From Sphingomonas brevis (lineage in GTDB: Bacteria > Pseudomonadota > Alphaproteobacteria > Sphingomonadales > Sphingomonadaceae), in NCBI RefSeq assembly GCF_023516505.1, contig NZ_JAMGBB010000001.1, positions 2,155,001-2,219,000 on the forward strand: DNA of 64,000 nt, given 5' to 3'. Shown here piece after piece: positions 1 through 17,481 of the stretch (positions are counted from its first letter, which is position 1; every line of letters begins with the position of its first letter). The notes below the pieces were generated by a model, which worked only from the letters and a program-made list of their open reading frames with translations, was not told the DNA's origin and did no database searches. The position numbers and the translations under genes are program-made.

Positions 1-868
1 CGAGAGCGGCGCTGCTGCCGAACGCCCGGGCAAATCGCGGAAACAGCCTGTCCGCCAGCCAGAACAGGACGATTGCCGCGATTGAGTAGAAGAGGATCCC
101 GAGCCAGGTGTGCTCAAGCACATAATGGCCGATCTCGTGGCCGGTCACCGCGCGCACTTCATCCAGCGACGCACTCTTCAATGCCACGTCGGAAATCGCC
201 ACGCGCGCCGTGCTGCCGACGCCGCCGGCATTGGCGGTGAAATTATTCGACTGGCGAGAGCCATCGTACATGAACACTTGGCTTGGCGGCACGCCGGCAC
301 GTCCCGCCATCTCGACCACCGCGTCGCGCACCTGGCCCGGCGGCACCGGCTCATATTTGTTGAACAGGGGCTCGATCAGCACCGGCGACAGCAGGATGAC
401 GAATGCCAAGCCGCCTGCGACCAGCCCGCCCGACCATAGCCACCAGCGCTTGCCCGTTTTGCGGATCAGCCAATAGACGCCGATCATGAACAACGCACCG
501 ATCGAGGAGGTGATCAGCGTCGAGAGAGACAGCTGCCCCAGGAAATCGCCGATCGGCTGGCTCGTGCGCCCATAGCCCTTTTCGCGAAACCAGCTGGCAT
601 AGATCGTCCACGGCAGCGAAAGCACGGCCGACACCAGAAAATAGATCAGGCTGACCAAAAATGCCCGCACATGGTGCCGACGTTCGGGGAGCCGCTTGTC
701 GATCCGCTCAAGCACGCCCGATTTGACGATCAGCCAGGTAACGATGCCGGCGACTACCAGGCCCCACAACAGCATCCATTCCTTGCCGATGGTGTAATCG
801 TGCGCCTTTTGCAGGGCGGCAGGCCCAAGGCTATCGATATACCGTGCGGTCGCTGCTTCGACGTTCAT
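1..868 (-). CDS. Ste24-type M48 zinc endopeptidase, 3' end cut by window
   Basis: The frame starts at the ATG at 868, behind a strong GGGGAGGAA ribosome binding site, and runs off the left edge after 289 codons. The N-terminus has several hydrophobic helices, including stretches around residues 30-45 and 65-85. Near residues 240-250 it reads VTGHEIGHYV, the HExxH zinc site of gluzincin peptidases, preceded by a region with the FNKYEPV and SRQSNNFTANAGG segments typical of CAAX-protease-like Ste24 enzymes. Members are membrane-embedded and cleave membrane or exported proteins. It lies 64 bases downstream of the CHAT gene on the same strand, so it could be the last cistron of the two-partner secretion operon, but it may simply be a neighbour. 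The family call is secure; its substrate is unknown. Confidence 0.9.
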   Translation of the reverse strand, partial: MNVEAATARYIDSLGPAALQKAHDYTIGKEWMLLWGLVVAGIVTWLIVKSGVLERIDKRLPERRHHVRAFLVSLIYFLVSAVLSLPWTIYASWFREKGYGRTSQPIGDFLGQLSLSTLITSSIGALFMIGVYWLIRKTGKRWWLWSGGLVAGGLAFVILLSPVLIEPLFNKYEPVPPGQVRDAVVEMAGRAGVPPSQVFMYDGSRQSNNFTANAGGVGSTARVAISDVALKSASLDEVRAVTGHEIGHYVLEHTWLGILFYSIAAIVLFWLADRLFPRFARAFGSSAAL

Positions 869-932
869 CGCAATTCCTCCCCCTGCGACAGTAAGGGGAC
901 CGTAATGAAATTGGCGCGGGCCGCAACGCTTC

Positions 933-3900
933 TTATTGGCCTGTCGGCGCGATGCTCCCGGCGGCAATCGCCGTTGTCGGGATCAACGGCTTGGCGCCGT
1001 CGCCGAGGATGATGAACGCCGCCCAATAGAAAGGATGCGACGTCCGGGGATCGTCCATCAATTTTTCCTGGGCCTGCTCCAGCGCCAGCGCCAGCGGCTG
1101 CCCGGGCTGGGCATTGACCATCCCGCCGACGAGCCGCTTGGTAGCGTCAAATTGTTCGGGCACCGGCCAATGGCTGGCGACGACCGACCGCGCGCCCGCG
1201 CCGACGAAAGCGCGCACCAGCCCGTCGAGCGCATAATTGCCGCCGGTGGCGATGCCGGCCTCGCGGCTCACCGCCGCTGTCGCCGATCCGGCGGTGTCGC
1301 AAGCCGACAGGATCACGACATCGGCATCGAGCTTCAGGTCGAAGATTTCGCGGAAGCTCAGCAAGCCATCCGAGCCGTCGGGGGCGAAGCTGGTGAGAAG
1401 TGCCGGCCGGGCCGGGCAATCCGGACGCGGCGCAGTGACCAGTCCGTGCGTGGCGAAATGCAGCACGCGATAATTGTCGAGCCCTTCGCTGGACTGGAGC
1501 AGGGCGGCGTCGTTGAACGCGGCTCCCGTCACCAATCGGCTGCGGTCTGGCCCGAACCGTGCCTCGGCCAGTTTCAGTTCAGCCGCGGAGATCGGTTGCT
1601 GCCACATGGCGATCGGCCAGTCGCACTCGTCGGCGACCGCCGCCATCGGCCGGCTGAATGCGACCGCATTTTCGCCCAGTCCGAGATAGGCCTGGCGTGC
1701 GTGGCTCGGTGCGATCGCCCGCATGTCGAGGAAGCTGCGCGGACCGACCGATATCGAAACCTGACGTCCGCGTCCGAGCCAGTCGACTCCCGTGAAGTCG
1801 AACTCGTCGGCATTGGGCCGCGCGATCCGGGCGGCATAGGCGTCCACGCTGGCCTGGGTCGCGGGAAGCAAATAGGGCGGCAGTTGCAGCATCGGCCCGT
1901 CGGGCTCGAAGATCAGGTGCTTGAGCCCGCGCACTTCGCCGTCGACCGGTCCGAACAGGGTCAGGTACATCGCCCGGGCGCGCTTCAGGTCGAACGGCTC
2001 GGTCAGTGCCTCGCCATTCTCGATCCTAACGATGCTGCCCCGAAGCGCGGTGACATCGGCCGCCATGGCGCTGCCGCTGGTCGCCAGCTTGAGCGGGCGC
2101 GCCGCCTCCTTGGTGATGGCAAGCGCGTAGATTGCCTCGCCGACCACCATCATCTTGTAATAACCTTCGCCCGGCCGCAGCGCCCCTTGCAGCTCGGCCA
2201 GCTCGACAGTCTGCGGACTGAGCACCTTGTAGCGCGGATAATCGTTGAGCTGCGCCTGCAGCCGGACCTGCTCGGCCTTGAGCGCCTCGAGGCTGGCCTT
2301 CCCCGCCGCGATCGCCTGGTCCTGCGCCGTGGTCCGTTCGGCAAGCGCCTCCAGCCGGCCGATTTCGCCTTCCTGCCGGACAATCTCGCGGGTGCGGGCG
2401 ATCGCCAATCGGAACAGCGCGCTACCCTGGTCATTGCCGGCCGAATATTGGCGGGCGAGGATCGCCTGGGTTTGCGCGACGCCGGGCCGCTGCAGCAGCT
2501 GGGCCGCGCGAAACATCGCGGCTGCCGCCGTGCCGGTACCGTCTCTCGCCAGCAGGTCGAAATAAGGGGCGAGCAAGTTGCGGAGAGCCGTCGAGCTGTC
2601 GGCCACGCTGGTACCCTGGTCGATTACCTCCCCGAACAGCGCCCGCCCGCCGGCCTCGTCGCCCGAGCGCAGCAGGAAGCCGGCCTTGCGTGCCTTGGCG
2701 GACAAGAGGGCCGGGCTGTCGGGGAAGCTGTCGGCCAATGCGGCAATCGCCGCATCGAATGCCGACACGGCCCCTGCTCGATCTCCGCGAGCCTCGGCGA
2801 CCAGCGCCCGTTCGACTTCGATTTCGCTGAGCAGCCAGCGTGCGGAAAGGACCTTGCCCTCGCGCACGCCAATTATTCGCTCGCGGGCATCCACCAGCTT
2901 CGCTTCGGCGTCGCCGAGCCGCTTTTCCTGGCGGAGGGCGATGGCGCTGAGCTCGGTTGCCTGCGCGTCGAGAATTGCCGCCCGCTCGGAGGGGGTGAGG
3001 TTGGAGCTTAGTTCGGCGACCTGTTGCCCGGTCGCGCTTTCCCGGTTGATGGCGAGACTCAGCGGCGGCGTGATCAGCCCGTTACGAATTTGCTCCGCCT
3101 GGTCGGCCTCGGCCACCGGCGCAACATTGACCGCTAACGCCGCCTCGGCGGCGGCCGGCTTGTGCTGGTTGAGCTGGTTGATCGCGCGATAGTTGCGGAT
3201 CAGGCGCTGGATCACGCCATCGCTCCGCGGGCTTGCCGCTTCGGCGCGGGCCAGCAGCCGCTCGGCCGCGCTCGAATTGCCAAGATTGGATTGCTGCAGG
3301 CCCTGGTTTGCCAGCGCTTCGGCGAGTGACGACGGTTCGTTGACGTCGCGGCCGGCCAGGTTCTCGAAAAACTCCGCACTCTCGGCGAAACGACCGGCAT
3401 TGTTGCGGGTGTAGGCTTCGACGCGCGCTCCGGCGGCGTCGAGCGAACCGGCCTGGATCCGGGCGAATGCTGCCGGGTCGCTGACTTCGGTCGTCGCGAC
3501 CTGCACCGCACCTGGCTGGGCCTTGTCGGTCACTACCGATGCCAGGGCCAGGCGAAGCGCGGGATCATAGCCCGCCAATCCCTCGGCGAGATATTGCGTC
3601 TTGCCGCGCTGGACGGAATAGCGCCGGTAATCCAGCCCGGCGGCCTCATCGCGGCAAGTGATGGCACGGACTGTACCGATTCCATCAATCGATGCCGCTT
3701 CTTCGGCCCGGCACGTCAAGGGCCCCATTGGGAGCGCGCTTGGCTCCCGGGCCAGGTCGACCGCCCGCCGGACCGCAACCACGCTGCCGATCGGTGCGGC
3801 GGCGTCGCGGCAGGTGAGCTGGTAGCCACGGTCGAAGATGCTAGTGAGGCGCGGATCGGTCGGCTTGATCTGGGCCGTGCACAATACGCCGGCATCGCCG

Positions 3901-4004
3901 ATCCGGAAGCTCGAGCGGATCGATAGCGGCGCGTCGGCCGCCTCGGCCAATGCCGGGACGAGCGCAACTCCGGCCAGCAACATCCCTGTCAGTACGCGGG
4001 TCAT
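933..4004 (-). CDS. Exported TPR/CHAT-domain caspase-like protein of the TPS locus
   Basis: This 1,023-residue protein has a signal peptide (MTRVLTGMLLAGVALVPALAEA), so it should be exported. Residues about 190-280 contain helical TPR-like repeats, and a long helical and coiled-coil region follows to about 590. The last 330 residues are a CHAT domain, a caspase-fold peptidase. The expected dyad is visible: HFATHG with His853 and LSACDTAG with Cys902, followed by the VRAFVGAGARSVVASHWPV segment typical of the family. The ATG overlaps the tpsA stop codon (ATGA), and a GAGGAG site lies inside the end of tpsA, so translation is coupled to the exoprotein. By inference it acts in the periplasm or outside the cell on the TpsA product, its transporter or a trigger protein. 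No substrate is shown by the sequence. Confidence 0.9.
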   Translation of the reverse strand: MTRVLTGMLLAGVALVPALAEAADAPLSIRSSFRIGDAGVLCTAQIKPTDPRLTSIFDRGYQLTCRDAAAPIGSVVAVRRAVDLAREPSALPMGPLTCRAEEAASIDGIGTVRAITCRDEAAGLDYRRYSVQRGKTQYLAEGLAGYDPALRLALASVVTDKAQPGAVQVATTEVSDPAAFARIQAGSLDAAGARVEAYTRNNAGRFAESAEFFENLAGRDVNEPSSLAEALANQGLQQSNLGNSSAAERLLARAEAASPRSDGVIQRLIRNYRAINQLNQHKPAAAEAALAVNVAPVAEADQAEQIRNGLITPPLSLAINRESATGQQVAELSSNLTPSERAAILDAQATELSAIALRQEKRLGDAEAKLVDARERIIGVREGKVLSARWLLSEIEVERALVAEARGDRAGAVSAFDAAIAALADSFPDSPALLSAKARKAGFLLRSGDEAGGRALFGEVIDQGTSVADSSTALRNLLAPYFDLLARDGTGTAAAAMFRAAQLLQRPGVAQTQAILARQYSAGNDQGSALFRLAIARTREIVRQEGEIGRLEALAERTTAQDQAIAAGKASLEALKAEQVRLQAQLNDYPRYKVLSPQTVELAELQGALRPGEGYYKMMVVGEAIYALAITKEAARPLKLATSGSAMAADVTALRGSIVRIENGEALTEPFDLKRARAMYLTLFGPVDGEVRGLKHLIFEPDGPMLQLPPYLLPATQASVDAYAARIARPNADEFDFTGVDWLGRGRQVSISVGPRSFLDMRAIAPSHARQAYLGLGENAVAFSRPMAAVADECDWPIAMWQQPISAAELKLAEARFGPDRSRLVTGAAFNDAALLQSSEGLDNYRVLHFATHGLVTAPRPDCPARPALLTSFAPDGSDGLLSFREIFDLKLDADVVILSACDTAGSATAAVSREAGIATGGNYALDGLVRAFVGAGARSVVASHWPVPEQFDATKRLVGGMVNAQPGQPLALALEQAQEKLMDDPRTSHPFYWAAFIILGDGAKPLIPTTAIAAGSIAPTGQ

Positions 4005-7000
4005 TGCTGCGTCTCCTCTTTACACGGAACCGTCGGCTGGTCTCCGCCGGTCGGGCAGCCGGCGGGCGTTTCCATCAGCGCCGGGTTGCCGCTGCCCGAG
4101 ACCGGATCGTCGATGTCGCCCTGATCGCCCAACGCGCTCGTATCGAACAGCGGCACTGGCGGCTCGATCGGGCTGGTCGCGCCATCCTCGGTGAAGTCGC
4201 TATTGTCGTCGATGAAGTCCTCATTCCCGAACAGGGGCGGCGGCAGCAGCCCTTCGTCGATCAGTTCAAATTCTTCCGGCAGACCCGGCGTCGGCGTGAA
4301 GTCCGGCGGGAATGGCGGCTCCGGCGGCTGCGCGACGCACGGCCCGACCAGGAGGCAGCCGTTTATCGTGCTGTTGTCGGTAAATGCGGTGATGTCGCCC
4401 TGGGACTCGACCAATGTATCGCGGACGTCGATTCCGGTCAGCGTGCCGCCCTCGGTGACAATCTGGCCGTTGATGATGAGGTCGATCGTGCCGGGGGGTG
4501 CCGTTGGGCCTTCTCCGTCGCCAAGCAGGGACTGGTCGCTGACGACAAAGCCGGCGGGAATATCCTCGGTGCCTGTATTCTGGACATAGAGGGTATTCAG
4601 CTCACCTGCGCCGGCATCGCCGAATACAATGTCGATGCTGGCGGCACGGATGACGCCGTCAGGCCGTTGGACCGCGGCCGGCGCGTTGAGGTCGTCCTGG
4701 TAGCCGTCATATTGCGGGTCGTCGGCCAGCTGGTCGAGGATATCGCCGCTGGCGACGTGGATATGGGCGGCATTGAGGAACAGCTCGCCGCCCAGGACAC
4801 CGGGCGCGCTTTCCAGGCTGAGCAGTCCGGTTTCGGCGTCGAGCTCGAACGTGCCGGTGGTGAAACCGACCGACTGGGTAGTGCCCATGTTGGTGAACAT
4901 CATGTCGCCCAGGATCCGGATCGAACCAGCGGCGCTCTCGGTCTCGCTGTCCCCGGTGATGAACTCATAATCGTGAATGGCTTCCCCATCGGAACCGTCG
5001 ACGCTTAGGTCGCCAATCAGCATCAGCGGGGCCGCGCCCAGCCCGGCGTCGGCGATGACCGTGATGTCATTGGCATGCAGCCGGTCATATTCCGCGTCGG
5101 ACAGCTGGTAACCGCCGCCACCGACTCCGTCCCCGACCACGGTTCGAACGGCGTTGGTCGACACCAGGGCGATATCGCCTGCGCTGATCGAACCGTTGGC
5201 GGTGATATCGATGTCGTCCGACGTGACCTGAACGTCGCCGGCCGACCATGCGCCGTCGATGGTCGCGGTGCCGCCGGCGGTCGCATCGATGTCGCTGGCG
5301 CCGACCGCGCGCGCCGTCAGGTTGGTGCCGGCGGAAGCCTGGAAGAACCCGGCCGCACTGGCATCGCCGATCTCGATCGCGCCGGTGTCGGCGGTCAGCA
5401 GTATATAATCGCCGGAGTCGATGTCTTCGCTCGTAAGGCTGGTCCCGGCGTGACCTTCGACGAATGTCAGCGCGTCGATGAAGCCGGTCCCGATGCTCCC
5501 CGCTGCCTGCAAGTAAACGCCATCGATCGAGCTGATGTCGCCGGTCAAAATATCGCCGCCGGATTCCAGCGTAATACTGGCGCCCGGGAACAATAATGTG
5601 CCGATCCCGCCGCCGAACAGCTGGAAGATCTGGGTCGTCAGGTCGCCGGTTGTGATGTCGCCGCCGGCCAACAGGTCGATCGATCCGGCCGCGATGTCGC
5701 CGGTGAGGATCGAACCGCCGGCATCCATCTCGACGCTGTCGAACGCGAAGATATCGCTGGTGTCGATGCCGGTTCCCGCCGTGATCTGCAGCAGTCCGGT
5801 ATCGATCGTCCCGGCAGTAACCGACGTCGTGGAATCGAGGCTGGCGCTGTTGCCGGCATTGATGTTGCCGGTCGAAATCGACGCCGCGCCGACCTGCAAT
5901 TGGCCGGTCGAAATCGCACCGGCCACATTATAGGCGCCGCCGCTGCGGACCGGCGATTGCGCGAACACCGCGGCGGGATCGAAATTCTCCACACCGCCAT
6001 TGTCGAGGAACATTTGCACATCGCCATGATAGACTCTGCCGTCCCCCGGCGTCGTGATCGACACGATATTGGTGTCGCCGCCGACCATGGTCAGTACGTC
6101 CGTACCGGCATTGAGCGCGCCGGTGGTGAGGTTGCCAAGAGTCGCGAAGCCGATTGCTTCGTCGGCATCGACATCGCCGACCTGGATCGACGTCGCCGAT
6201 GCGAACCCGGCGGCGAAGCCGTCTTCGGCCGCTCCGCCCGCCTGGAGGATCCCGACATTGATGTCGCCCAGGACGATCGTGCCGCCGGCATCGCCGCTCG
6301 CGTGCGTTCCTATGACGAGATCGCCGCCCAGCACATTGCCGCCGGCGCTGAAATCAAAATCGTCCGCTGCCACGTCGCCGAAGCTGATGTTGCCGGGCGC
6401 GTCGAGATCGATCGAGCTTCCAGCGGACAAATCGCCGAGCGCGACATTGCCGTTATTCGACAATATTTCGATGAAAGTGCCGGCGTTGACATCGGCCAGC
6501 GTAACGTCGCCGAAGCCGTTTGCGATTACCGATCCCGATGCGGTCAGCGTACCTCCGTCGATCGTTCCGCCAGCCTGCAGGAATATGTCGCCGGCGCTGC
6601 TGGTCGCATCCTTGATGTCGATCAGGCCGGGCGCGACGAGATTGAGCGAATCGGTCGAGACCAGATGCGCGTCGATCACCAAATCCTGTCCGGTAGTCAG
6701 GTTGAACGTATCAGCCGTGATCGCGCCAATGGCCGGCGGTGGTACAGTACGGTTGGGGTCGTGAATGAAGTTGGCTGCCGAAACCGTAAAGCCGGTCGCG
6801 CTGGCGGTGCCGTTATTGGTGTAGACCGAAATGACTCCGTCGGTGTTGAACGCGAAGTCGCCCAAAACGGTGAGGCTGCCGTTGATCACCTGGATCGTAT
6901 CGTTGGCCAGGTCGGCGATCTGACCATCGGCGACCACGTCGATCTGCACCGACAAGGCCGTCGCGTCGCCATTGATGACATAGAAGCCGCTGCCGCCTTC

Positions 7001-10000
7001 CATCAGGCTGGCGCCAGGGGTCGAGCCACTGCCTCCAGTTGAAGTTGAGGTGCCGATAATCGAGCCGGCGTTCAGCGTGCCGCGCAGCGTGGCGTCGCCC
7101 GGCCGGTTCACCACCACCACCGCGACCTCGTCGCTTTCGGCGTTGCCGCCAGCGCCATCGACCGCGCCTAAACCGCCGTTGCCGCCGGTCGCGTCGGCGG
7201 TCAGCAAGATGCTGGACAGGACGACGGTGCCGCCACGTACTTGGAGCGACGCGGTGCCGCCCTCGACGCTTCCGCCTGCGCCGCCATTGCCATCGGCGCC
7301 GGCCGTGCCTGCAGGAGTGCCGGATCCCGCCGCCCCGCCGAACCCTCCCGCGCCGCCATCGCCGCCGACCGCGCTCGCCGTGATTGCCATGAAGACGAAG
7401 TTTGCAGTGCCGTCGTTGATGCCGGGGGCGAGTCCATTGCCCAATTCGACGCCAGTCGTGGCGAAGCCGCCAAAGGCGTCGCCGCCCGCGCCGCCGGTGC
7501 CGCCGGCACCGCCATTGCCACCCGCGCCGGAGCTGCCGTCGCCACCAATGCCGCCATTGCCACCCGCGCCACCGAAGCCCCCGGTGCCGCTGGCCTCGAC
7601 AAATCCGAAGTCCAGGGTGATGGTGCCATTGCCGACCGAGCCGGTGATCGCCGCGACGCCGCCGGTCCCGGTGCCGCCATTGCCGCCATTGCCGCCGGCC
7701 GTTCCGTTGGTGCCGGAATTGCCGCCCACGCCATCGATTCCGGAAATTCCGTCCCCGCCATCGCCGCCAAAGCCGCTGGCGCTGACCGTGCCGAGCGACT
7801 CGACGCCCTGGACGGTAACGGAGCTTGGGGCGGTGTTGCCATTTGCGGCGTGGATCGAGGCCCAGCCGCCGGCCCCGTCGCCGCCATTGCCACCGTTGGC
7901 TCCGGAACCGCCGAAGCCGTCGGCGAAAGAGCTCGCTGACCCGCTGATGACGAGATTGCTGTTCTGCGCGTAAATGTGAGCGCCGTTTATCTGGCCGCCG
8001 AAATAGTCGCCGCCGCCGGTGCCGTTGCCGCCGGTGGTGCCGTTGCCGCCGAAGCCCGAGACATTGACCAACGCGGTTCCGTTGATGGTGATGTCGCCAC
8101 CGCTGGCGTTGATCCGGGCGGTCCCGCCGGTGCCATTGCCGCCCGTACCGCTTTCGCTGTCGCCGCCAGTGCCGCTTGCGTCGACGAACAAGCTGCCGAA
8201 GGACGCCGTTCCTGCCAGGGCGGTGAAGCGAGCGACTCCGCCCAGGCCGTTGCCGCCGGTGCCGCCATTGCCAAACGAGCTTCCGCCAAAGCCGCTGGCG
8301 TCGAGTTCCGATGTGCCGGTGACCGTGAGCGTACCGCCGGTCGCGGCGGTAAAGGCATCGACCAGGCCGCCAGTGCCATTGCCGGCTACTCCGCCATTGG
8401 TTTGCCAGCCGCCATTGCCGATCGCGTCGAGCCTGAGATCGCTCAGCAAGGCCACGGCAGCGCCATTCTGGACCCCCAGCCTGGCGGTGCCGCCCTGGCC
8501 GTTGCCGCCGGCGCCGGCATAGCCGTCGCTTCCGGTGCCGTTCGCGGTTCCGGTCAATACTCCGTCGACCGACAGCAGAGCGTTTGCATTGCCGATCGCT
8601 TCGATGGTCACCAGGCCGCCGGTGCCGTTGCCGCCTGTGCCGCCGCAGTCATTGCAATCGCCAAAGGAGAAGCCGCCCAGCCCGTCCGCGCTCAGCCCAA
8701 CGTCGCTGTCGGCATTGAGCGTCGCGCCATTGGCCCGGAACAAGACCGTCCCGCCGACCCCGGCGCCGCCCTGCGAGCCGTCGCTGAAATAATGACCCCC
8801 CTGGCCGTCTGCGCGGCCGGTCACGATTCCCGTCAGCGTCATCGTGCCGCCATTGGCGGCAATGATTTCGGTCTGCCCGCCGGTGCCGACGCCGCCGGCC
8901 GAGGAGCCCTGGTTGGTGAATCCGCCGCGACCCTGAGCCTCGGCATCGGTATCGTCATCGACCGTCACTGTCCCGCCGTTCGCGCGGAGCAGGACATGCC
9001 CCCCGGTTCCGGCACCGCCCGTGCCGTTGAAGGCGTCGCCGCCATCGCCGTCCGCGTGGAGCGCAAGCTCGAAGATGTCGGCGGTTCCGCCCCCGGAAGC
9101 CTCGACGAAGACGTCGCCACCGGTGGCGATGCCGCCGGCGATCAGGTCGCCGCCGGAATCACCCCCAAAACCGTCAGCCGATCCGCTGAGGAAGCCGGTG
9201 TTGAGCGATCCTGCGGATGTGACCTGGATATTGACCCAGCCGCCGTCGCCCACGCCGCCGGTTACGCCGCTGCCGCCGAAGCCGTCGGCATTGAGCAGGG
9301 TCACCTCGCCGTTCAGGTTGATGGTGCTGGCCGCGCCGCTGAAGCTCAGTCCGATGTACCCGCCGGTGCCCGATCCGCCCTGGCCGCCGATCGTGTCGTT
9401 GTCGACTCCGAAGCCGCCATTCCCCTGGGCATCGGCAATCAGGTCGCTGTTGACCGTGATCGTTCCGCCGTCGCCGCTGACCAGCTGGATATTGCCGCCA
9501 AGGCCATTGCCGCCGGCCATGTCGCCGCCGCCGCCTTCGCCATTGGCAGTCAGGCTCACATTCTGCAGGGTCAGCTGGTTTCCGGTGCCGGTCACTGCCT
9601 GGAGAAGGATGATCCCTCCGGTCCCGTTACCGCCGGTAATTTGGCATGAAGAGCAATCGTCGCCGACGCTTCCGCCGAGAGCCCTCGCCGAAACCGACAC
9701 CGAGCCTCCGACCGTAAGGTTTGCACCGCTGCCGCCATTGGCGAGGATATGGGCAATGCCGCCGGTGGCATTGCCGCCGGCCAGTTGGAATCCGGTCACG
9801 CTGCCGCCTTCGGCGTCGACATTGATGTCGAGGCTGCCGGCGATGTCGATTGTGCCGCCCGAGCTGGTCTGGACGATCGCCGTGCCGCCAGTCGCATTGC
9901 CGCCATTGATGTCGGCGCCCGCGGCGCCGAAGCTCTTGGCCGAAATAAATACATTGCCGCCGATCGTCAGTGTCGAGTTGCTGATCGTCGACAGGCGGAA

Positions 10001-11254
10001 GAGGTTGCCGGTGGTCGTGGGGCCGGTGCCGAACATATCGAGATTGGCGTTGAGGTCGCCGGCTATATGGAGCGTGTTGCCGTTGCTTGCGGTGACGATG
10101 CTGTCGTCGCCCGCGCGGATCGTCAGGTTGGTCAGATTGACCAGGCTGCCGCTGTCGAAGCTGCTGTTGCCGGTGCTGGTGCGCACGTCGACCCCGCCGC
10201 TGACATCGGCCAGGACGCTGGTCGTGAAATTCGAACTGTCGATGTTGAGGTTGACCGGTGCCGCGCCGACCGCATTGTCGATCTGGCTATCTTCGATGTT
10301 CCTGCCGCCCGACAGTACGACGACATTGCCTTCGAGCGCCGCCGACGTCGCCGTATCGAAGCCGATCGAACCGCCATTGCGGACCAGCATGGTGACCGCG
10401 TCGTTCTTCGCCACCGCGACCAGATAGGCATAATGATTGTTGTTCAATGCCTCGGTCGGGTCGCGGCGCTCGATCGTGCCGCCATCGACATCGACGCCAT
10501 TGGCGTCGTCGGTTCCGACCGTCACCTGGACGTCGAACAGCCCATCGGGGGAGAAGGTAATGGTCGCCGCCTCGGCCGCGACCAGCGCCGCGGCGGTATC
10601 GGTGCGGATGACGCCGTGATGCTCGATTCGCGGCGCGACCAGCGCGACATAGCTGCCCGCGCCATGGGCGTTGATCGATCCGTCGATCACCGCATCGGTG
10701 CGGATGAAGCTGTTGGGATCGACCGTGCCGCCGAAGCTGACCTGCGGATTGGCAGTGCCGAAGCCCGTCATCCAATTGCCCTCGCCGTCATCGCCGATGG
10801 GCAGGGTAGTAAGGCCGAGCGATCCGACATTGATCACCGCATTCTGGCCGATGACGATGCCGTTTGGGCTGTAGAAAAAGACGGTGCCGCCGACCGTTTC
10901 GCCGATCAGCGAAGTGATGCTTCCGCCCATGAATATGGCGTTGCCGGCGGTACCCGGCGTGATCCGGTTGAGCACCGCGAAATCGCTCGATCCAGTGAAG
11001 GTCGCGCTGGTTCCTTCGGGCTGGAAGACGATCGTGCCGCCCGACGGCGCGTTGGTCGCGATCCAGTCGATGACCGCCTGTTCCTGGGTAATGGTGACGT
11101 TGGTTTGCCCCGGCGTCGACTGGTCGACACTCGCTCCGACTTCGCTGTGCGAGCCCTGGAAGCTTTGCGCGGCGGCGGGCGACGGGCCGGCGGCCAGCGC
11201 GATGGCCAGGGCCAGGCTTGAAACCCTGGCTTGGACTGACTGTCTACGCGTCAT
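4001..11254 (-). CDS. TpsA-type filamentous haemagglutinin-like exoprotein, glycine-rich
   Basis: This is a 2,417-residue secreted protein. The ATG at 11254 is preferred over the GTG one codon earlier because AGGAGG lies six bases upstream. A long signal peptide ending near AAAQS precedes the two-partner secretion domain, which shows NRIT near residue 97 and YSPNGIVIG near 130, a variant of the NPNGI motif recognised by TpsB pores. Residues about 430-1,480 are imperfect repeats rich in GGNGTGG and GTGG with Ala/Asp-Gly-Xaa-Gly-Gly units. Residues about 1,550-2,150 change to short GDI/AGS beta-helix-like repeats. The C-terminus is proline-rich and acidic and carries two close cysteine pairs (GCLLVGPC and CPTGGDQPTVPC). 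It follows tpsB by 23 bases and overlaps the CHAT gene by four. Adhesion or contact-dependent function is inferred from the family only. Confidence 0.9.
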   Translation of the reverse strand: MTRRQSVQARVSSLALAIALAAGPSPAAAQSFQGSHSEVGASVDQSTPGQTNVTITQEQAVIDWIATNAPSGGTIVFQPEGTSATFTGSSDFAVLNRITPGTAGNAIFMGGSITSLIGETVGGTVFFYSPNGIVIGQNAVINVGSLGLTTLPIGDDGEGNWMTGFGTANPQVSFGGTVDPNSFIRTDAVIDGSINAHGAGSYVALVAPRIEHHGVIRTDTAAALVAAEAATITFSPDGLFDVQVTVGTDDANGVDVDGGTIERRDPTEALNNNHYAYLVAVAKNDAVTMLVRNGGSIGFDTATSAALEGNVVVLSGGRNIEDSQIDNAVGAAPVNLNIDSSNFTTSVLADVSGGVDVRTSTGNSSFDSGSLVNLTNLTIRAGDDSIVTASNGNTLHIAGDLNANLDMFGTGPTTTGNLFRLSTISNSTLTIGGNVFISAKSFGAAGADINGGNATGGTAIVQTSSGGTIDIAGSLDINVDAEGGSVTGFQLAGGNATGGIAHILANGGSGANLTVGGSVSVSARALGGSVGDDCSSCQITGGNGTGGIILLQAVTGTGNQLTLQNVSLTANGEGGGGDMAGGNGLGGNIQLVSGDGGTITVNSDLIADAQGNGGFGVDNDTIGGQGGSGTGGYIGLSFSGAASTINLNGEVTLLNADGFGGSGVTGGVGDGGWVNIQVTSAGSLNTGFLSGSADGFGGDSGGDLIAGGIATGGDVFVEASGGGTADIFELALHADGDGGDAFNGTGGAGTGGHVLLRANGGTVTVDDDTDAEAQGRGGFTNQGSSAGGVGTGGQTEIIAANGGTMTLTGIVTGRADGQGGHYFSDGSQGGAGVGGTVLFRANGATLNADSDVGLSADGLGGFSFGDCNDCGGTGGNGTGGLVTIEAIGNANALLSVDGVLTGTANGTGSDGYAGAGGNGQGGTARLGVQNGAAVALLSDLRLDAIGNGGWQTNGGVAGNGTGGLVDAFTAATGGTLTVTGTSELDASGFGGSSFGNGGTGGNGLGGVARFTALAGTASFGSLFVDASGTGGDSESGTGGNGTGGTARINASGGDITINGTALVNVSGFGGNGTTGGNGTGGGDYFGGQINGAHIYAQNSNLVISGSASSFADGFGGSGANGGNGGDGAGGWASIHAANGNTAPSSVTVQGVESLGTVSASGFGGDGGDGISGIDGVGGNSGTNGTAGGNGGNGGTGTGGVAAITGSVGNGTITLDFGFVEASGTGGFGGAGGNGGIGGDGSSGAGGNGGAGGTGGAGGDAFGGFATTGVELGNGLAPGINDGTANFVFMAITASAVGGDGGAGGFGGAAGSGTPAGTAGADGNGGAGGSVEGGTASLQVRGGTVVLSSILLTADATGGNGGLGAVDGAGGNAESDEVAVVVVNRPGDATLRGTLNAGSIIGTSTSTGGSGSTPGASLMEGGSGFYVINGDATALSVQIDVVADGQIADLANDTIQVINGSLTVLGDFAFNTDGVISVYTNNGTASATGFTVSAANFIHDPNRTVPPPAIGAITADTFNLTTGQDLVIDAHLVSTDSLNLVAPGLIDIKDATSSAGDIFLQAGGTIDGGTLTASGSVIANGFGDVTLADVNAGTFIEILSNNGNVALGDLSAGSSIDLDAPGNISFGDVAADDFDFSAGGNVLGGDLVIGTHASGDAGGTIVLGDINVGILQAGGAAEDGFAAGFASATSIQVGDVDADEAIGFATLGNLTTGALNAGTDVLTMVGGDTNIVSITTPGDGRVYHGDVQMFLDNGGVENFDPAAVFAQSPVRSGGAYNVAGAISTGQLQVGAASISTGNINAGNSASLDSTTSVTAGTIDTGLLQITAGTGIDTSDIFAFDSVEMDAGGSILTGDIAAGSIDLLAGGDITTGDLTTQIFQLFGGGIGTLLFPGASITLESGGDILTGDISSIDGVYLQAAGSIGTGFIDALTFVEGHAGTSLTSEDIDSGDYILLTADTGAIEIGDASAAGFFQASAGTNLTARAVGASDIDATAGGTATIDGAWSAGDVQVTSDDIDITANGSISAGDIALVSTNAVRTVVGDGVGGGGYQLSDAEYDRLHANDITVIADAGLGAAPLMLIGDLSVDGSDGEAIHDYEFITGDSETESAAGSIRILGDMMFTNMGTTQSVGFTTGTFELDAETGLLSLESAPGVLGGELFLNAAHIHVASGDILDQLADDPQYDGYQDDLNAPAAVQRPDGVIRAASIDIVFGDAGAGELNTLYVQNTGTEDIPAGFVVSDQSLLGDGEGPTAPPGTIDLIINGQIVTEGGTLTGIDVRDTLVESQGDITAFTDNSTINGCLLVGPCVAQPPEPPFPPDFTPTPGLPEEFELIDEGLLPPPLFGNEDFIDDNSDFTEDGATSPIEPPVPLFDTSALGDQGDIDDPVSGSGNPALMETPAGCPTGGDQPTVPCKEETQQ

Positions 11255-11277
11255 CACTTGCCTCCTAAGGCCTGTCG

Positions 11278-12990
11278 TCAGGGGAGAATTTTCGTGGTCA
11301 GCGTGACCAGCACGCGGACGTCTCCCTTGCGATTTTCAAATCCTGCTTTTTCCAGCGGCACAGCGACCGTGCCGTCCAACCGGAAGCGGTCGGCCAGCTC
11401 GGCGCGGATGCCGCCCCCGGCCGAGGCCAGATGGTCGGCGCCCTCGCCGTCATTCTTGTTCCACGCCCAGGCGGCGTCGCCGAAGATGAAGGGCTGGACG
11501 GCCAGCCTCGACCGCTTGACCGGAAGGATGCGCGGGCCGCGCAGCTCGGCGCTGAGGCCCGCTCCGCTGTCGCCGCTGAGCGTCGCCGGATCATATCCCC
11601 GCCCGACCGTATAATTGCCGGCGGTGAATTCCTCGAACGCCAGCAGCGGGTCGAACGCATATTGGAGTCGCGGGCTGACCGACAGCGCGAAGTCGCGGCC
11701 CAGCGCCACCTCGCCGGTTCCGCCGAGGCGGATGACGGTCGCGCTGGAATCTCCGTCGAGGCGGCTGGGCGGGACATCGTCGCCGCCGTCGCTGGCATCG
11801 AAAATGCCAAGGCCGTGGCGAATCTCCCCAAATGCGCTCACCCGCCAGCCGGGCCGGCGAGAGCTCAGGTCGATCGCGTCCCAGTCGGCCCTGAGCCACA
11901 GGATGCGCAGCTTGTCGCGGGTCAGCGGCTCGAAGAAATGGACCTTCTGGTCGACGAAATCGAAGCCGATGCCGCCCCACAGATTGGACGATTGGCTGCG
12001 GATCAGCGGGTAACGGGCGTCAACCGTCCAGTACAAGGTCTTGGCCTTGAGGTCGGGCACGGCGTCGCTCGCGCCAATGTCCGGCTTGGTCCAGGCATAG
12101 GTGAACTGCCCGTCGATCGTCAGTCCTTCGGACCCGGGGCGGAAGCTATGCGCCGCCTGCAGGATCTTCTGTTCCTCGAAGTCGAACGTCGAATAGAAGG
12201 ACAGTGTGGTGACATCGCCCAGCCCGGTCAGGCCGAACGCCTGGCCGCGGACCTGCCCGCCCCACCGGCCGGTTTCCTGCGCCCCCAAATTCTGGATGAG
12301 CAGGTCCAGCGAATAGGGCTCGTGCAGCACCGCTACTTCGCCGACCAGTTCGCCGGGGCCAGTGCCGGCCGGCTTCAGCGTCAGCTGGACATTATATCCT
12401 GGCAGGTCGCGGGCCAGCAGCAGGTAGCGCTCGGCCCGGTTGCGGTCGAAATATTCGTCCTCGGTCAGCTTGCCCAGATAGGCGGCGAGCTTGGCCTCGG
12501 CCCCGCCGGTCTGCCCGCGGGCTCGGATGGTAGTGACCCGGGCATAGAGCGTTTCCATCCGCACCACGCCATTCTCGATCCGCTGGGTCGGCACCTGGAC
12601 CGCAGCCAGATACCCCTTGTCGCGCAAAATGGTCGCGGCGGCATCGCGGATTTCGCACAGCACCGCCACTGGCTGCTCGCCCCCGGCGAACGGCGTCCAG
12701 GCTGGACGCATTTCCTCGGGAGTGGCGCCCTTCAGCCCATTGAACTGGACCTCGCTGATCGTCACCCGGACGTCGGCATAGCGTGGGTCGGCTAGCGGGC
12801 AGGGCGAGCGCTCGACCCCGCCGACTATGTTCAGCGTCGGCCGGCCTTGCGACGGCGCCAGCGTGATTCGATTCAGTTCTTCGCGGGACGGCGCAACCCT
12901 TTGCGCGGATGCGGTCGAGGGGAAGAAAAGCGCGGCGGTCGCGAGCAATCCGCCCGCCAGCTTCCCGCTTGTCCAAGCTGGTCCCGTCAT
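11278..12990 (-). CDS. TpsB outer-membrane transporter (ShlB/FhaC/HecB family)
   Basis: This 570-residue protein has a signal peptide ending at SASAQ and starts at an ATG behind AAGGGG. A POTRA domain is visible around residues 75-150 (VRVTISEVQFNGLKG through RDKGYLAAVQVPTQRIENG). The remainder is a beta-barrel with alternating strands ending in an aromatic-poor VLVTLTTKILP terminus. VGRGYD at residues 462-466 corresponds to the conserved VRGY motif of the barrel loop that plugs the pore in TpsB proteins. In this family the POTRA domain recognises the N-terminal TPS domain of the partner and threads it through the outer membrane. It is the first gene of the tpsB-tpsA-CHAT operon, and the partner is the next gene. 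Confidence 0.93.
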   Translation of the reverse strand: MTGPAWTSGKLAGGLLATAALFFPSTASAQRVAPSREELNRITLAPSQGRPTLNIVGGVERSPCPLADPRYADVRVTISEVQFNGLKGATPEEMRPAWTPFAGGEQPVAVLCEIRDAAATILRDKGYLAAVQVPTQRIENGVVRMETLYARVTTIRARGQTGGAEAKLAAYLGKLTEDEYFDRNRAERYLLLARDLPGYNVQLTLKPAGTGPGELVGEVAVLHEPYSLDLLIQNLGAQETGRWGGQVRGQAFGLTGLGDVTTLSFYSTFDFEEQKILQAAHSFRPGSEGLTIDGQFTYAWTKPDIGASDAVPDLKAKTLYWTVDARYPLIRSQSSNLWGGIGFDFVDQKVHFFEPLTRDKLRILWLRADWDAIDLSSRRPGWRVSAFGEIRHGLGIFDASDGGDDVPPSRLDGDSSATVIRLGGTGEVALGRDFALSVSPRLQYAFDPLLAFEEFTAGNYTVGRGYDPATLSGDSGAGLSAELRGPRILPVKRSRLAVQPFIFGDAAWAWNKNDGEGADHLASAGGGIRAELADRFRLDGTVAVPLEKAGFENRKGDVRVLVTLTTKILP

Positions 12991-13090
12991 CCGCGCCCCT
13001 TTTTAACGCACTACAAGGGGACTCGGCCGGAAATCCTGCGCGCCCCCACGCACGTTAAATTTGGTGAAACTAATCTTAATGTGAGTCAAT

Positions 13091-13108
13091 GTTGAACATC
13101 AGTTCAAC
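13091..13108 (-). promoter_or_regulatory. Perfect 7-bp inverted repeat upstream of the TPS operon
   Basis: The sequence GTTGAAC-ATCA-GTTCAAC forms perfect 7-base arms with a 4-base spacer, about 100 bases upstream of tpsB. The surrounding DNA is much richer in A and T than the rest of the window, and a TTGACT-like -35 hexamer follows it on the minus strand. A convincing -10 at the right distance is not obvious. It looks like an operator for a dimeric repressor or activator of the operon. This is inferred from symmetry and position. Confidence 0.4.
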
Positions 13109-13147
13109 TTTTATGACTCGTCCCGTTTGGTGCCAGAAACCGAAGGC

Positions 13148-14032
13148 CTAGCGGGCTTCGAAGCCGGCAATACATTCGGCAACCCAGCGTGCGGCGGTAA
13201 GGGCGCTGAGGTCGGTCGGGTCGAGCGGCGGATCCCATTCGGTAAGGTCGACGATCCGCACCTTGGGATGTGCTGCCAGGGCGCGAACGGCCTGGAAGAA
13301 TGTGTGGCTCATCATGCCGCCCGGCCTGGCGCCCGGTGCTCCGGGAAACTGGCTGCGATCGATCACGTCGATGTCGCAGTCGACCACGACAGCTTCGCAA
13401 TGATCGAGACGATGGAGCGCATGGCTCATCAAAACCAAAATGCCTTCGCGCCACACATCACCGATCGTGGCGACGAAATGCCCCCCTTCGACCGCATCTC
13501 GGTGCATCTCTTGGCTATTGGCGAAGGGTGCGAGGCCGACCTGGGCGATATTCTTGCCCGGCATTCCGTCATCGCGCAGCGCCCGCACGGGATTGCCGTT
13601 GCCGAGGCCCTGCGATGTGTCGCGCATGTCGAAATGGGCGTCGAGCGTGATCAGCCCGACCTTGTCCAGCGGCAAGCCCAGCGCATGAACGCCGGGCCGT
13701 GTAACCGCATTATTGCCGCCGACCAATAACGTCAGCCGATGCCGCTCGACGCTCGCCTTGCAAGCCGCGACGATCGACGGAGTCGCCTCCTCGATGCTGA
13801 GGCCCGCAATCGGCACATCGCCATGATCGGCGATACTGGTTTGCAGCTCTCGTCCAGTCTCGATGTCATATCGCCCGATCCGCCTGAACGTCGCGCGAAG
13901 CAGCGCCGGCGCAAGGTCGCAGCGCCCTGGAGTCACCGATCCCATGTTGAGCGGCGCTCCGACCAGCCCGACCGGCGCATCCGCCGTCTTGTCGACAATC
14001 AGGTCCGAAAGATTAGGCCATCCGCTGCTCAT
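13148..14032 (-). CDS. hutG: Formimidoylglutamase-type ureohydrolase (arginase fold)
   Basis: This is an arginase-superfamily protein expected to hydrolyse N-formimidoyl-L-glutamate to glutamate and formamide, the last step of the four-step histidine pathway. Numbered from the GTG at 14050, the motifs are DAHFDMRD (137-144) and DCDIDVID (224-231), which supply most manganese ligands, followed by GARPGG. The usual first motif GGDH/GGGH is GGNN here (111-114), so the metal-binding histidine is replaced by asparagine. The ATG at 14032 is chosen; the GTG at 14050 would add six residues. Neither has a clear ribosome binding site. It is divergent from hutI with a very short gap, so the cluster likely shares a bidirectional promoter. 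The histidine-pathway role comes mainly from context. Confidence 0.82.
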
Positions 14033-14073
14033 GCGCTTGACGACTAGCACTGCTGACGCCCAATTCCAGCATC

Positions 14074-15288
14074 ATGTGGGACCGCCTGATCACCGACTGC
14101 CATGTCGCGACGATGGTCGCCGCGCCGGACAATCCGCTCGGCCTGTTTCCCAATGCCGCGATCGGAATCGATGGCGGCAAGATCGTACGGGTCGGAAAGC
14201 GCACGGAGCTGGCCGGTTTCCGCGCGAAGGAAGTGGTGCCCTGCGGCGGCGCCTGGATCACGCCGGGCCTGGTGGACTGTCATACCCATCTGGTGTTCGG
14301 CGGCACCCGTGCAAACGAACATGCCATGCGCCGCGCCGGCGCAACCTATGAGGAAATCGCCAAAGCGGGCGGCGGCATCGCCTCGACCGTCGCGGCGACG
14401 AAGGCCGCCAGCGCCGACGCGCTGCAGCAGCAGGCGCGCCGCCGTCTCCACGCGCTGATGGCCGGCGGAGTTACTACCGTCGAGATCAAGTCGGGCTACG
14501 GTCTCGACACTGCGTCCGAGATGCGGCTCCTGAACGCCGCCCGCGCCATCGGCCGGGGCGAGCCGGTGCGGATCGTCACCACTTTGCTCGCCGCGCACGC
14601 GCTTCCGCCGGAGGCCAGGGAAGGTCTGGCGCGCGAGGCTTATGTAAGGATGATCGTGGAGGAAATGATTCCGGCGGTCGCCAAGGCCGGAATCGCCACC
14701 AGCGTCGACGCCTTTTGCGAATCCATCGCCTTCACGCCCGCGGAGGTCGAGCGGGTGTTCACCGCCGCCCGCGCCAACGGGCTTCCCGTCCGTCTCCACG
14801 CCGAGCAGCTCAGCAACCAGAAGGGCGCCGAACTCGCCGCGCGTTACAAGGCGCTGTCAGCCGACCATCTCGAACATCTCGACGCCGCCGGCGCCAAAGC
14901 AATGGCAGCGGCTGGGACGGTCGCGGTGCTGCTGCCCGGCGCCTTCTATGCGCTCAATGAGAAGAAGAAGCCGCCAGTTCAGCTCCTGCGTGACGCGGGC
15001 GTTCCGATCGCCATCGCGTCCGATTGCAACCCGGGCACCTCGCCGGTGCTGAACCCGCAGCTCATCATCAACATGGCGTGCACCCTGTTCGGCCTGACCC
15101 CGGAGGAGGCGATCGCCGGGATGACGGTCAACGCGGCCCGCGCGCTCGGCCTGGCGCATGAGGTCGGCACGATCGAGGCCGGCAAGGCCGCCGACCTGTG
15201 CGTCTGGCGGGTCAATGAGCTCAATGAGCTCGGCTATTGGGTCGGAATGCCGGGGCCGGAGCGGCGGATTTTCGCGGGTGAGGGATAG
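14074..15288 (+). CDS. hutI: Imidazolonepropionase
   Basis: The 404-residue protein matches the amidohydrolase-fold imidazolonepropionase, which opens 4-imidazolone-5-propionate to N-formimidoyl-L-glutamate in histidine degradation. Visible metal and substrate motifs are DCHTHLVFGG (His70, His72), RLHAEQ (His242) and ASDCNPGTS (Asp317). Length is normal for the family (about 400-410). The first ATG is used although no good ribosome binding site precedes it. It is the first gene of the rightward hut genes, with hutU following after a small convergent gene and a repeat. Confidence 0.96.
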   Translation: MWDRLITDCHVATMVAAPDNPLGLFPNAAIGIDGGKIVRVGKRTELAGFRAKEVVPCGGAWITPGLVDCHTHLVFGGTRANEHAMRRAGATYEEIAKAGGGIASTVAATKAASADALQQQARRRLHALMAGGVTTVEIKSGYGLDTASEMRLLNAARAIGRGEPVRIVTTLLAAHALPPEAREGLAREAYVRMIVEEMIPAVAKAGIATSVDAFCESIAFTPAEVERVFTAARANGLPVRLHAEQLSNQKGAELAARYKALSADHLEHLDAAGAKAMAAAGTVAVLLPGAFYALNEKKKPPVQLLRDAGVPIAIASDCNPGTSPVLNPQLIINMACTLFGLTPEEAIAGMTVNAARALGLAHEVGTIEAGKAADLCVWRVNELNELGYWVGMPGPERRIFAGEG

Positions 15289-15474
15289 TCAGCCGACAGC
15301 TTCCGGCGCGCTTTCTCCCATTGGAAAGTGATATTCCTCCGGAGTCAGAGCTTCGATCCGCTCTTCATATTTCCGAGCCAGCTCCTCATGCGCCCGGCGT
15401 GCAGGCTCATTGGCCCCGCTCTTGGCGCGACTGTGCTCGACCTGCTGGCGGTAGAATAGATAGTTGAGGTCCAC
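15289..15474 (-). CDS. Small conserved hypothetical protein (61 aa)
   Basis: The protein begins with MDLNYLFYRQQVEHSRAKSG and continues as a charged amphipathic helix ending near LTPEEYHFP. I recognise this as a type of small protein common in sphingomonads, with no known function. The start is set at the GTG at 15474 because GGAG lies five bases upstream; a longer frame to 15534 has a Pro/Arg-rich, non-conserved-looking N-terminus. There is no signal peptide or membrane segment. Its stop abuts the hutI stop convergently, so it is not part of the hut transcript. Confidence 0.68.
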   Translation of the reverse strand: MDLNYLFYRQQVEHSRAKSGANEPARRAHEELARKYEERIEALTPEEYHFPMGESAPEAVG

Positions 15475-15596
15475 GGTTGCTCCGCTCTCTTGATGCCGTG
15501 CCCCACAGCGAGGATGTGGGGGCGGTTTTGACACTTCAGTGGTTCATGCGGTCGACAGCCCGGCGTACGCGGTGGATGGAAGGCTTGACCTTTGCT

Positions 15597-15676
15597 GTCA
15601 TTGCGAGGAGCGGGAGCGGCGAAGCAATCCAGGAAGAGTCGGCGAAGCTGGATTGCTTCGCTGCGCTCGCAATGAC
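15597..15676. repeat. Intergenic palindromic repeat, class D
   Basis: The element begins GTCATTGCGAGGAGCG and ends CGCTCGCAATGAC. Its inner arms CGAAGCAATCCA and TGGATTGCTTCG are exact complements, so an arm of about 33 bases can fold on itself. Translated in the hutU frame it gives a spurious Cys/Arg-rich extension, which is why the hutU start was moved downstream. Only one copy of this class is present here. Confidence 0.8.
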
Positions 15677-15685
15677 GAGGGTAAA

Positions 15686-17347: not shown

Positions 17348-17348
17348 T

Positions 17349-17415
17349 CGTCATTCCCGCGAAAGCGGGAACCTAGCCAATCGAATTTCTGGGCCCCGCC
17401 TGCGCGGGAATGACG
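17349..17415. repeat. Intergenic palindromic repeat, class A
   Basis: CGTCATTCCCGCGAAAGCGGGAA at the left and GCCTGCGCGGGAATGACG at the right form two nested hairpins and one large inverted repeat. It starts two bases after the hutU stop. Other copies are at 24887, 29572 and 31137. Confidence 0.85.
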
Positions 17416-17481
17416 AATTTGGGGTCCCATACCGCGTCTCGCATGTTACGCATCCCCCGGGAGTTCGGGAGAGGGGGACGC

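What the first reader, a model, noticed from the sequence alone, without database searches (positions are those of the whole stretch)
933..12990. Coupled two-partner secretion locus with an exported CHAT caspase-like protein
Three genes (TpsB pore, 2,417-aa TpsA and a TPR/CHAT protein) form a tight minus-strand operon. The CHAT gene starts at an ATGA overlap with tpsA and has a signal peptide and an intact His853/Cys902 dyad. CHAT proteins are caspase-fold peptidases best known in cytoplasmic defence and regulatory systems; here one is probably periplasmic and produced in fixed ratio with a giant exoprotein. It could mature or release the exoprotein, clear jammed pores or respond to contact. 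The coupling suggests a dedicated exoprotein-plus-protease system, possibly with the M48 peptidase downstream.
Basis: partly seen in the sequence, partly recalled or inferred. Interest (0 to 1): 0.75.

Follow-up and report, generated by a model that had tools for sequence, protein, structure and literature searches.

The report
Exoprotein secretion operon with built-in protease
Many sphingomonad bacteria make a giant surface protein in one operon with its own exporter and a caspase-like protease, and the conserved end region of the giant protein was found only in genomes that also carry a gene for such a protease, which probably trims that end.

Summary
In detail: window 933-12990 (-) encodes TpsB, a 2,417-aa TpsA and a TPR-CHAT protein joined to tpsA by ATGA. 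It recurs: in 62 genus genomes, weak matches set aside, 21 have CHAT and cognate TpsB, one CHAT only, 40 neither; across the order the trio persists in several gene orders. CHAT looks exported: signal peptide, six conserved extra cysteines, invariant His853/Cys902. (2) A CHASE2-adenylate cyclase accompanies the module, linked or in trans: 85 of 87 cyclase genomes have CHAT. Best reading: a dedicated periplasmic protease that cuts the tail of its TpsA, as LapG does with CdrA. Cleavage is inferred. The M48 link is not supported. No description was found in the papers searched.

The parts
11278..12990 (-). tpsB: outer-membrane TPS transporter, 570 aa (POTRA_2 + ShlB), signal-peptide-like N-terminus
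4001..11257 (-). tpsA: giant exoprotein (2,418 aa from GTG; 2,417 from ATG at 11254)
10466..11116 (-). TPS secretion domain (PF05860) of TpsA
   Evidence: G000:C1:2165466-2166116, 35.3 bits, cut-off 33.5
4331..4732 (-). conserved C-terminal cap of TpsA
   Evidence: the window sequence is one of the 55 rows of the profile; folded in the model
4337..4357 (-). Cys loop C2301-C2307 (NGC-x5-C); both Cys invariant in alignments A2 and A5
4004..4333 (-). C-terminal tail of TpsA (aa 2309-2418), predicted disordered
   Evidence: pLDDT about 50-65
4073..4114 (-). tail motif IDDPVSGSGNPALM (aa 2382-2395)
4022..4057 (-). terminal Cys pair C2401/C2412 behind the motif
   Evidence: such a pair in 1 of 36 layout-I and 10 of 21 layout-II rows
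4001..4004 (-). ATGA overlap of tpsA stop and CHAT start
933..4004 (-). CHAT gene: exported-looking TPR-CHAT caspase-fold protein, 1,023 aa
3576..3911 (-). N-terminal beta domain of the CHAT protein (aa 32-143) with C42, C65, C98, C117
999..1985 (-). CHAT peptidase domain (aa 674-1002), also with C794 and C863
1446..1448 (-). catalytic His853
1299..1301 (-). catalytic Cys902

Best explanation
A two-partner secretion system with its own periplasmic processing protease. TpsB exports TpsA, which folds into a beta-rich body up to a C-terminal cap closed by a Cys loop (perhaps a pore plug like those described for HMW1/HxuA). A disordered tail of about 110 residues stays in the periplasm and carries a conserved motif near its end. 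The exported TPR-CHAT protein recognises this tail (probably with its TPR arch) and cuts it with the His853/Cys902 dyad, so that the exoprotein is released, re-set or matured. A CHASE2-adenylate cyclase, beside the genes in some lineages and elsewhere in this genome, probably links the state of the system to cAMP. Shown here: the genes, their recurrence, the conservation, and that the TpsA cap was found only in genomes with a CHAT match. Inferred: location of the tail, recognition by CHAT, cleavage and its outcome, the cAMP link.
For: Recurrence in several gene orders: of 80 loci, 76 have a CHAT ORF of 700 aa or more: BAC 30, CXBA 17, CXB 6, BACX 4, BC 4, CBA 3, CB 2, AC 2, CX 2, C only 6 (B TpsB, A TpsA, C CHAT, X cyclase; the loci were chosen round CHAT hits, 37 of them for a nearby ShlB hit). 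The CHAT tree needs 8 changes among six layout labels, 5 being the least possible. CHAT: dyad invariant 74 of 74, six further Cys kept in 69-71 of 74; in a later set of 20 CHAT loci, 13 of 13 with the six Cys are TPS-linked and 0 of 7 without them, by local profiles. TpsA tail: strict motif 52 of 57 CHAT-linked TpsAs, matrix leave-one-out 57 of 57, CHAT-free controls 0 of 5. C-cap: all 80 cap genomes have a CHAT match and 0 of 170 CHAT-negative genomes have the cap; among TpsB genomes 79 of 105 with CHAT and 0 of 48 without. Of 97 cap places, 85 have a listed CHAT on the same strand within 30 kb and 7 of the other 12 have a CHAT next to them. The tail is predicted disordered. [quoted passage not shown] DegP and CtpA process FhaB (PMC8263021, abstract); a TPR-CHAT cuts Csx30, encoded near it, and needs its Cys (PMC9729208, passages).
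Against: No cleavage is shown. The tail could be read by the cognate TpsB instead of CHAT: TpsBs of layouts I, II and BC (706-867 bits) also stand apart from the control TpsBs (102-509 bits), so co-occurrence cannot separate the two. Two genomes (G015, G022) have TpsB-CHAT pairs but no detectable TPS domain or TpsA N-terminus (PF05860 also missed G025, so it is insensitive), and G022 has no cap (G015 was not in that set). 47 of 127 CHAT genomes have no cap, among them those of the distant layout-III clade (G120, G177, G240, G267, G310), whose TpsA ends were not seen. In G159 the cap stands beside a CHAT match that covers only aa 9-719 with PF12770 at E 0.001. The Niveispirillum TpsA lacks the motif, and that of S. 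parapaucimobilis and 3 of 4 alphaproteobacterial ones outside the order fall under the threshold, though variants are visible; the TPS protein of L075 (CB layout) ends without it. Co-occurrence counts are not corrected for descent. Disulfide pairing and dyad geometry were not measured. The best fold match is DdvA, an anti-sigma factor, which speaks for signalling.
Confidence: 0.5

Rival explanations
1. CHAT is a periplasmic sensor or adaptor of a signalling pathway: the TpsA tail (free, stuck or pulled) is bound by TPR-CHAT and the signal goes to the CHASE2-adenylate cyclase; proteolysis, if any, acts on the signalling side.
For: Cyclase beside a listed CHAT in 49 of 89 cyclase places (three partial rows left out), and CHAT in 85 of 87 cyclase genomes; Sphingobium plasmid annotated CHAT-CHASE2-hypothetical-ShlB-hypothetical; Planktothrix plasmid with FHA, ShlB, CHAT, DUF928 and CHASE2; best fold match DdvA, an anti-sigma factor.
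Against: The dyad is invariant, which a pure adaptor would not need; 42 of 127 CHAT genomes lack this cyclase subfamily, and 7 of 80 cap genomes do.
Confidence: 0.25
2. CHAT is a quality-control protease that clears stalled or misfolded TpsA from periplasm and pore without a specific tail signal; the tail is a TpsB docking signal.
For: Tight operon with TpsB and TpsA; TpsB-CHAT pairs without TpsA exist.
Against: A special TpsA end would not be expected to track CHAT so closely.
Confidence: 0.15
3. Neighbours by shared transfer or regulation only; CHAT acts on unrelated exported or foreign proteins (for example in defence).
For: CHAT proteins are known in defence and regulation; other exported-looking CHAT proteins without TPS occur in the order and on plasmids.
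Against: The link survives changes of gene order; the cap was found only with CHAT; no PADLOC family matches this CHAT.
Confidence: 0.08

Closest known systems
LapG-CdrA of Pseudomonas aeruginosa (PMC5422565, passages)
   Same: Periplasmic protease that cuts the C-terminal tail of a TPS adhesin; nucleotide second-messenger control.
   Different: Here a caspase-fold CHAT protein (Pfam gives only CHAT) encoded inside the TPS operon; an adenylate cyclase instead of c-di-GMP control; cleavage unproven.
FhaB processing by DegP, CtpA and SphB1 (PMC8263021, abstract; PMC5422565, passages)
   Same: C-terminal region of a TpsA trimmed by proteases, two of them periplasmic, which governs release.
   Different: The 2017 review says that maturation-protease genes appear not to be part of TPS operons; here one is.
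HMW1/HxuA C-terminal disulfide anchor (PMC5422565, passages)
   Same: Cys pair near the C-terminus of TpsA.
   Different: Here the Cys loop is followed by a long disordered tail with a conserved motif.
Craspase TPR-CHAT (Csx29) with Csx30 (PMC9729208, passages)
   Same: TPR plus CHAT with His/Cys dyad; substrate encoded nearby; fold match E 4.1e-8.
   Different: RNA-guided CRISPR complex; here exported-looking, with a six-Cys pattern.
DdvA transmembrane anti-sigma factor (PDB 8rot/8rw5)
   Same: Best fold match of the CHAT model (E 3.6e-11).
   Different: Low TM-scores (0.22-0.27); an anti-sigma factor; the paper on its structure was not found in the library.
HetF (PMC8406250, passages)
   Same: CHAT plus TPR protein in a bacterial envelope process.
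   Different: Divisome and heterocyst role, transmembrane; no TPS mentioned in the passages seen.

Membership tests
Two-partner secretion (type Vb) | TpsB with POTRA and ShlB/FhaC barrel | tested here: met
Two-partner secretion (type Vb) | TpsA with N-terminal TPS domain | tested here: met
   35.3 bits over the cut-off of 33.5; hmmscan of the full protein missed it
Two-partner secretion (type Vb) | TpsA is secreted through TpsB | not testable with these tools
   needs a bench test
CHAT peptidases | CHAT domain | tested here: met
   PF12770, 174.4 bits
CHAT peptidases | His/Cys catalytic dyad | tested here: met
   74 of 74
CHAT peptidases | proteolytic activity | not testable with these tools
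   needs purified protein
LapG-type release protease | LapG protein family | tested here: not met
   only CHAT in Pfam at E 0.01; it may work like LapG but is not one
Craspase (type III-E CRISPR) | gRAMP/Cas7-11 and Csx30 beside the TPR-CHAT gene | tested here: not met
   eight ORFs of window 2-18303 scanned, no Cas family; the rest of the genome was not searched for it
Known anti-phage defence protein | PADLOC family | tested here: not met
   none for the CHAT protein; the cyclase in trans matches PycC (Pycsar cyclase) models over its cyclase domain

The most novel reading that the evidence does not exclude
A new trans-envelope system: an operon-encoded caspase-fold peptidase reads a sorting-signal-like tail of its own TPS exoprotein, and the cut or the free tail is reported through a CHASE2-adenylate cyclase to cAMP, so that secretion or contact at the surface controls the cell from outside in; related gene sets lie in Alphaproteobacteria and, with other tails, in Cyanobacteria.
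Probability: 0.25. Interest if true: 0.87.

Novelty: new variant of a known kind. Interest (0 to 1): 0.73.

Why it matters
[quoted passage not shown] Here a protease gene sits with them in many genera (the cap alone is in 22 of 77 genera searched), together with a precise candidate target, which makes the question what an exported bacterial CHAT protein cuts directly testable.

Tried and rejected
M48 peptidase as partner: no hit in 19 genus loci. Signal peptide as the mark of TPS-linked CHATs: rejected, since exported-looking CHATs without TPS exist; the six-Cys pattern separates them better. Solved relatives by sequence: none for the single protein; the matches of the profile that I saw are nearly all TPR proteins, none a CHAT protease. 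Fold of the TpsA end: no match at E 0.001, the best is a TPS haemolysin A structure at E 1.1. Promoter/terminator scan: numbers as in shuffles. Gene Y (small secreted protein between cyclase and TpsB in layout II): no Pfam family in four scanned. Literature: CHAT domain with two-partner secretion, with filamentous hemagglutinin or with CHASE2, and two-partner secretion with CHASE2, gave 0 papers each; a search for at least 3 of CHAT domain, hemagglutin, secretion, caspase gave 2,068, of which the 20 listed hold no 'CHAT domain'; CHAT domain with cyanobacteria gave 7 and CHAT domain or TPR-CHAT 37 listed, of which titles and abstract starts show none on TPS; three of these were seen in passages. 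The library is open-access only. A paper on the DdvA structure was not found; the one paper with DdvA was seen in passages, as was PMC8999054.
Full report
Observation. The operon is as described. On the minus strand TpsB (11278-12990), TpsA (4001-11257) and a CHAT protein (933-4004) follow each other, with 20 bp between tpsB and tpsA and a shared ATGA between tpsA and CHAT. Pfam finds ShlB and POTRA_2 in TpsB and CHAT in the third protein; the TPS domain of TpsA passes its cut-off in the genome search though not in hmmscan of the whole protein. The window lies in a 2.59-Mb genome.

Recurrence in the genus. A search with the CHAT protein hit 21 of 100 relatives, all of them of the same genus. 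Over 62 genus genomes, with weak matches set aside (CHAT: G001, G035; TpsB: G007, G045), 21 have both CHAT and the cognate TpsB, one has CHAT only (G036, whose CHAT lies at a contig start) and 40 have neither. The 21 include G053, with broken frames, and G039, with a CHAT remnant of 66 aa beside a TpsB fragment.

Recurrence in the order. PF12770 matches 127 and PF03865 matches 153 of 297 genomes. Both tables list only their best 150 places. Of the 150 listed CHAT places 47 lie within 20 kb of a listed ShlB place, all on the same strand, where about 1.7 are expected. Five genomes already in hand were set aside; of the other 145 places 43 were near and 102 far. I fetched 37 of the near and 23 of the far ones and 20 more far ones. 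By local profiles and the tail score, 19 of the first 23 far ones and 13 of the 20 later ones are TPS-linked too; 59 far ones were not looked at. In L066 and L096 the TPS partner is a giant ORF upstream of CHAT, cut by the stretch and recognised by its tail only. In L070 and L075 a TPS-domain protein lies between a divergent CHAT and TpsB (TPS domain scanned in L075 only). A scan of named genomes (the best 80 of 536 confirmed, capped) gave, together with four plasmid loci, CXBA 28, BAC 22, BaC 5, BACX 4, CX 4, CBA 3, AC 2, CXB 2, C only 7 and seven single other patterns (lower-case a is a long ORF after TpsB that the TpsA profile does not match). BaC holds two Phenylobacterium, one Caulobacterales and one unclassified alphaproteobacterial locus besides S. 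parapaucimobilis. C only includes three Caulobacteraceae loci with short upstream sequence and a Reyranella locus with full flanks, that is, without TPS. Annotated plasmids: Sphingobium herbicidovorans CHAT-CHASE2-hypothetical-ShlB-hypothetical, Sphingomonas parapaucimobilis with an FHA-like TpsA before CHAT, Planktothrix agardhii FHA, ShlB, CHAT, DUF928, CHASE2, Anabaena cylindrica FHA then CHAT. Counter-examples: CHATs of Pseudosulfitobacter, Nostoc, Oscillatoria, Agrobacterium vitis and Tolypothrix without TPS in the stretches seen, an Azospirillum TpsB with a cyclase but no CHAT, and an Acaryochloris ShlB with only a short CHAT protein some 3 kb on.

The CHAT protein. In 74 full-length homologues His853 and Cys902 never vary; six other cysteines are kept in 69-71 rows, and the five rows that depart are two whose start is missing (L069, L071) and three TPR-CHATs without TPS (L090, L095, L106). 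A crude rule finds a signal peptide in 69 of 74; the Niveispirillum homologue starts like a lipoprotein (by eye). AlphaFold2 gives a beta domain, a TPR-like helical part and a CHAT domain (mean pLDDT 83.6, pTM 0.83). Its nearest folds are DdvA and the Craspase TPR-CHAT.

The TpsA end. The 57 CHAT-linked TpsAs used (36 layout I, including one piece of the broken G053 gene; 20 layout II; one Sphingobium plasmid) share a Cys loop (55 of 57, permissive pattern) and a terminal motif (strict pattern 52 of 57; the other five are variants by eye). A scoring matrix with a threshold at 99.9 percent of shuffled tails (6.43 bits) accepts 57 of 57 in leave-one-out; 29 of 35 further TpsAs (4 duplicates dropped; the fails are a wrong-frame ORF, Niveispirillum, S. 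parapaucimobilis and three of four loci outside the order); 0 of 5 TpsAs from CHAT-free genomes; and 4 of 973 other ORFs, which are TpsA frames or giant ORFs directly upstream of CHAT (L043, L066, L096, L099). Twenty control loci were fetched; 8 had a long ORF after TpsB, of which 3 were cut by the end of the stretch, so the control is small. The motif also holds in layout II, where CHAT is not next to the tpsA 3' end, so adjacency alone does not explain it. The C-cap profile hits 80 of 297 genomes, all with a PF12770 match; of TpsB genomes, 79 of 105 with CHAT and 0 of 48 without. Of 97 cap places (three second pieces left out) 85 have a listed CHAT on the same strand within 30 kb. A last search looked at 7 of the other 12: in G191, G213, G264, G266, G280 and G326 a full CHAT homologue lies directly behind the cap, in G159 a match to aa 9-719 only; 5 were not checked. 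The two cyclase genomes without CHAT (G014, G214) have no match to this CHAT protein either. The model of the last 420 residues is folded up to the Cys loop and disordered after it. The ends of layout-III TpsAs were cut off and not seen; the cyanobacterial TpsA ends look different (by eye).

The cyclase. Layout II and some layout I loci carry a CHASE2-adenylate cyclase beside CHAT. The window's genome has one elsewhere (C1:1257868-1259898). Its subfamily (my limit: E 1e-80) is in 87 of 297 genomes; 85 of these have CHAT and 73 the cap; of 89 places (three partial rows left out) 49 are next to a listed CHAT and 40 are not.

Mechanism. Known TPS tails can stay in the periplasm, be locked by a disulfide loop, and be cut there by LapG (CdrA) or DegP/CtpA (FhaB). 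The simplest reading is that this CHAT is the built-in version of such a protease, with the conserved tail as its target. It is not proven; the tail may instead be read by TpsB, and genomes G015 and G022 keep TpsB-CHAT pairs without a detectable TpsA. The signalling reading with the cyclase is the main rival and the most novel reading.

Verdict. Real, recurrent and not found described in the library searched; function inferred. New variant of a known kind.

Noticed in passing
own genome G000:C1:1257868-1259898 (L110 1294-3372): CHASE2-adenylate cyclase of the CHAT-linked subfamily, unlinked to the operon here.
   Followed up: partly
L041 (G022) 3745-8662; L037 (G015) 3609-8472; L085 (G213) 8632-13553; L087 (G231) 6370-11252: TpsB-CHAT pairs with no TpsA between them. 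G022 and G015 have no detectable TpsA; G213 and G231 have a separate TpsA-CHAT locus.
   Followed up: partly
G159:C1:1622500-1625372: The CHAT match behind a TpsA cap covers only aa 9-719 of 1023; the CHAT gene may be damaged or altered.
   Followed up: no
L042 7511-10705, L043 6876-10034, L045 3693-6770, L085 3528-6671: About 1,050-aa exported-looking protein near several CHAT loci of the second genus clade; the one scanned (L042) has no Pfam family.
   Followed up: no
layout II loci, e.g. L049 3486-4304, L056 16354-17280: Small secreted-looking protein Y (about 250 aa) between cyclase and TpsB, no Pfam family.
   Followed up: partly
L044 (G053) and L046 (G039): Broken CHAT/TpsA/TpsB frames in one genome and a CHAT remnant beside a TpsB fragment in another; decay or assembly error.
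   Followed up: no
L242: A contig of an Akkermansia MAG carries CHAT, CHASE2-cyclase and a TpsB fragment; mis-binning or transfer was not tested.
   Followed up: no
L120 (Azospirillum oryzae plasmid) 7626-11509: Adenylate/guanylate cyclase gene directly before ShlB, without CHAT.
   Followed up: no
window 13148-14050: HutG/arginase-family gene upstream of tpsB, kept near the operon in several genus relatives.
   Followed up: partly
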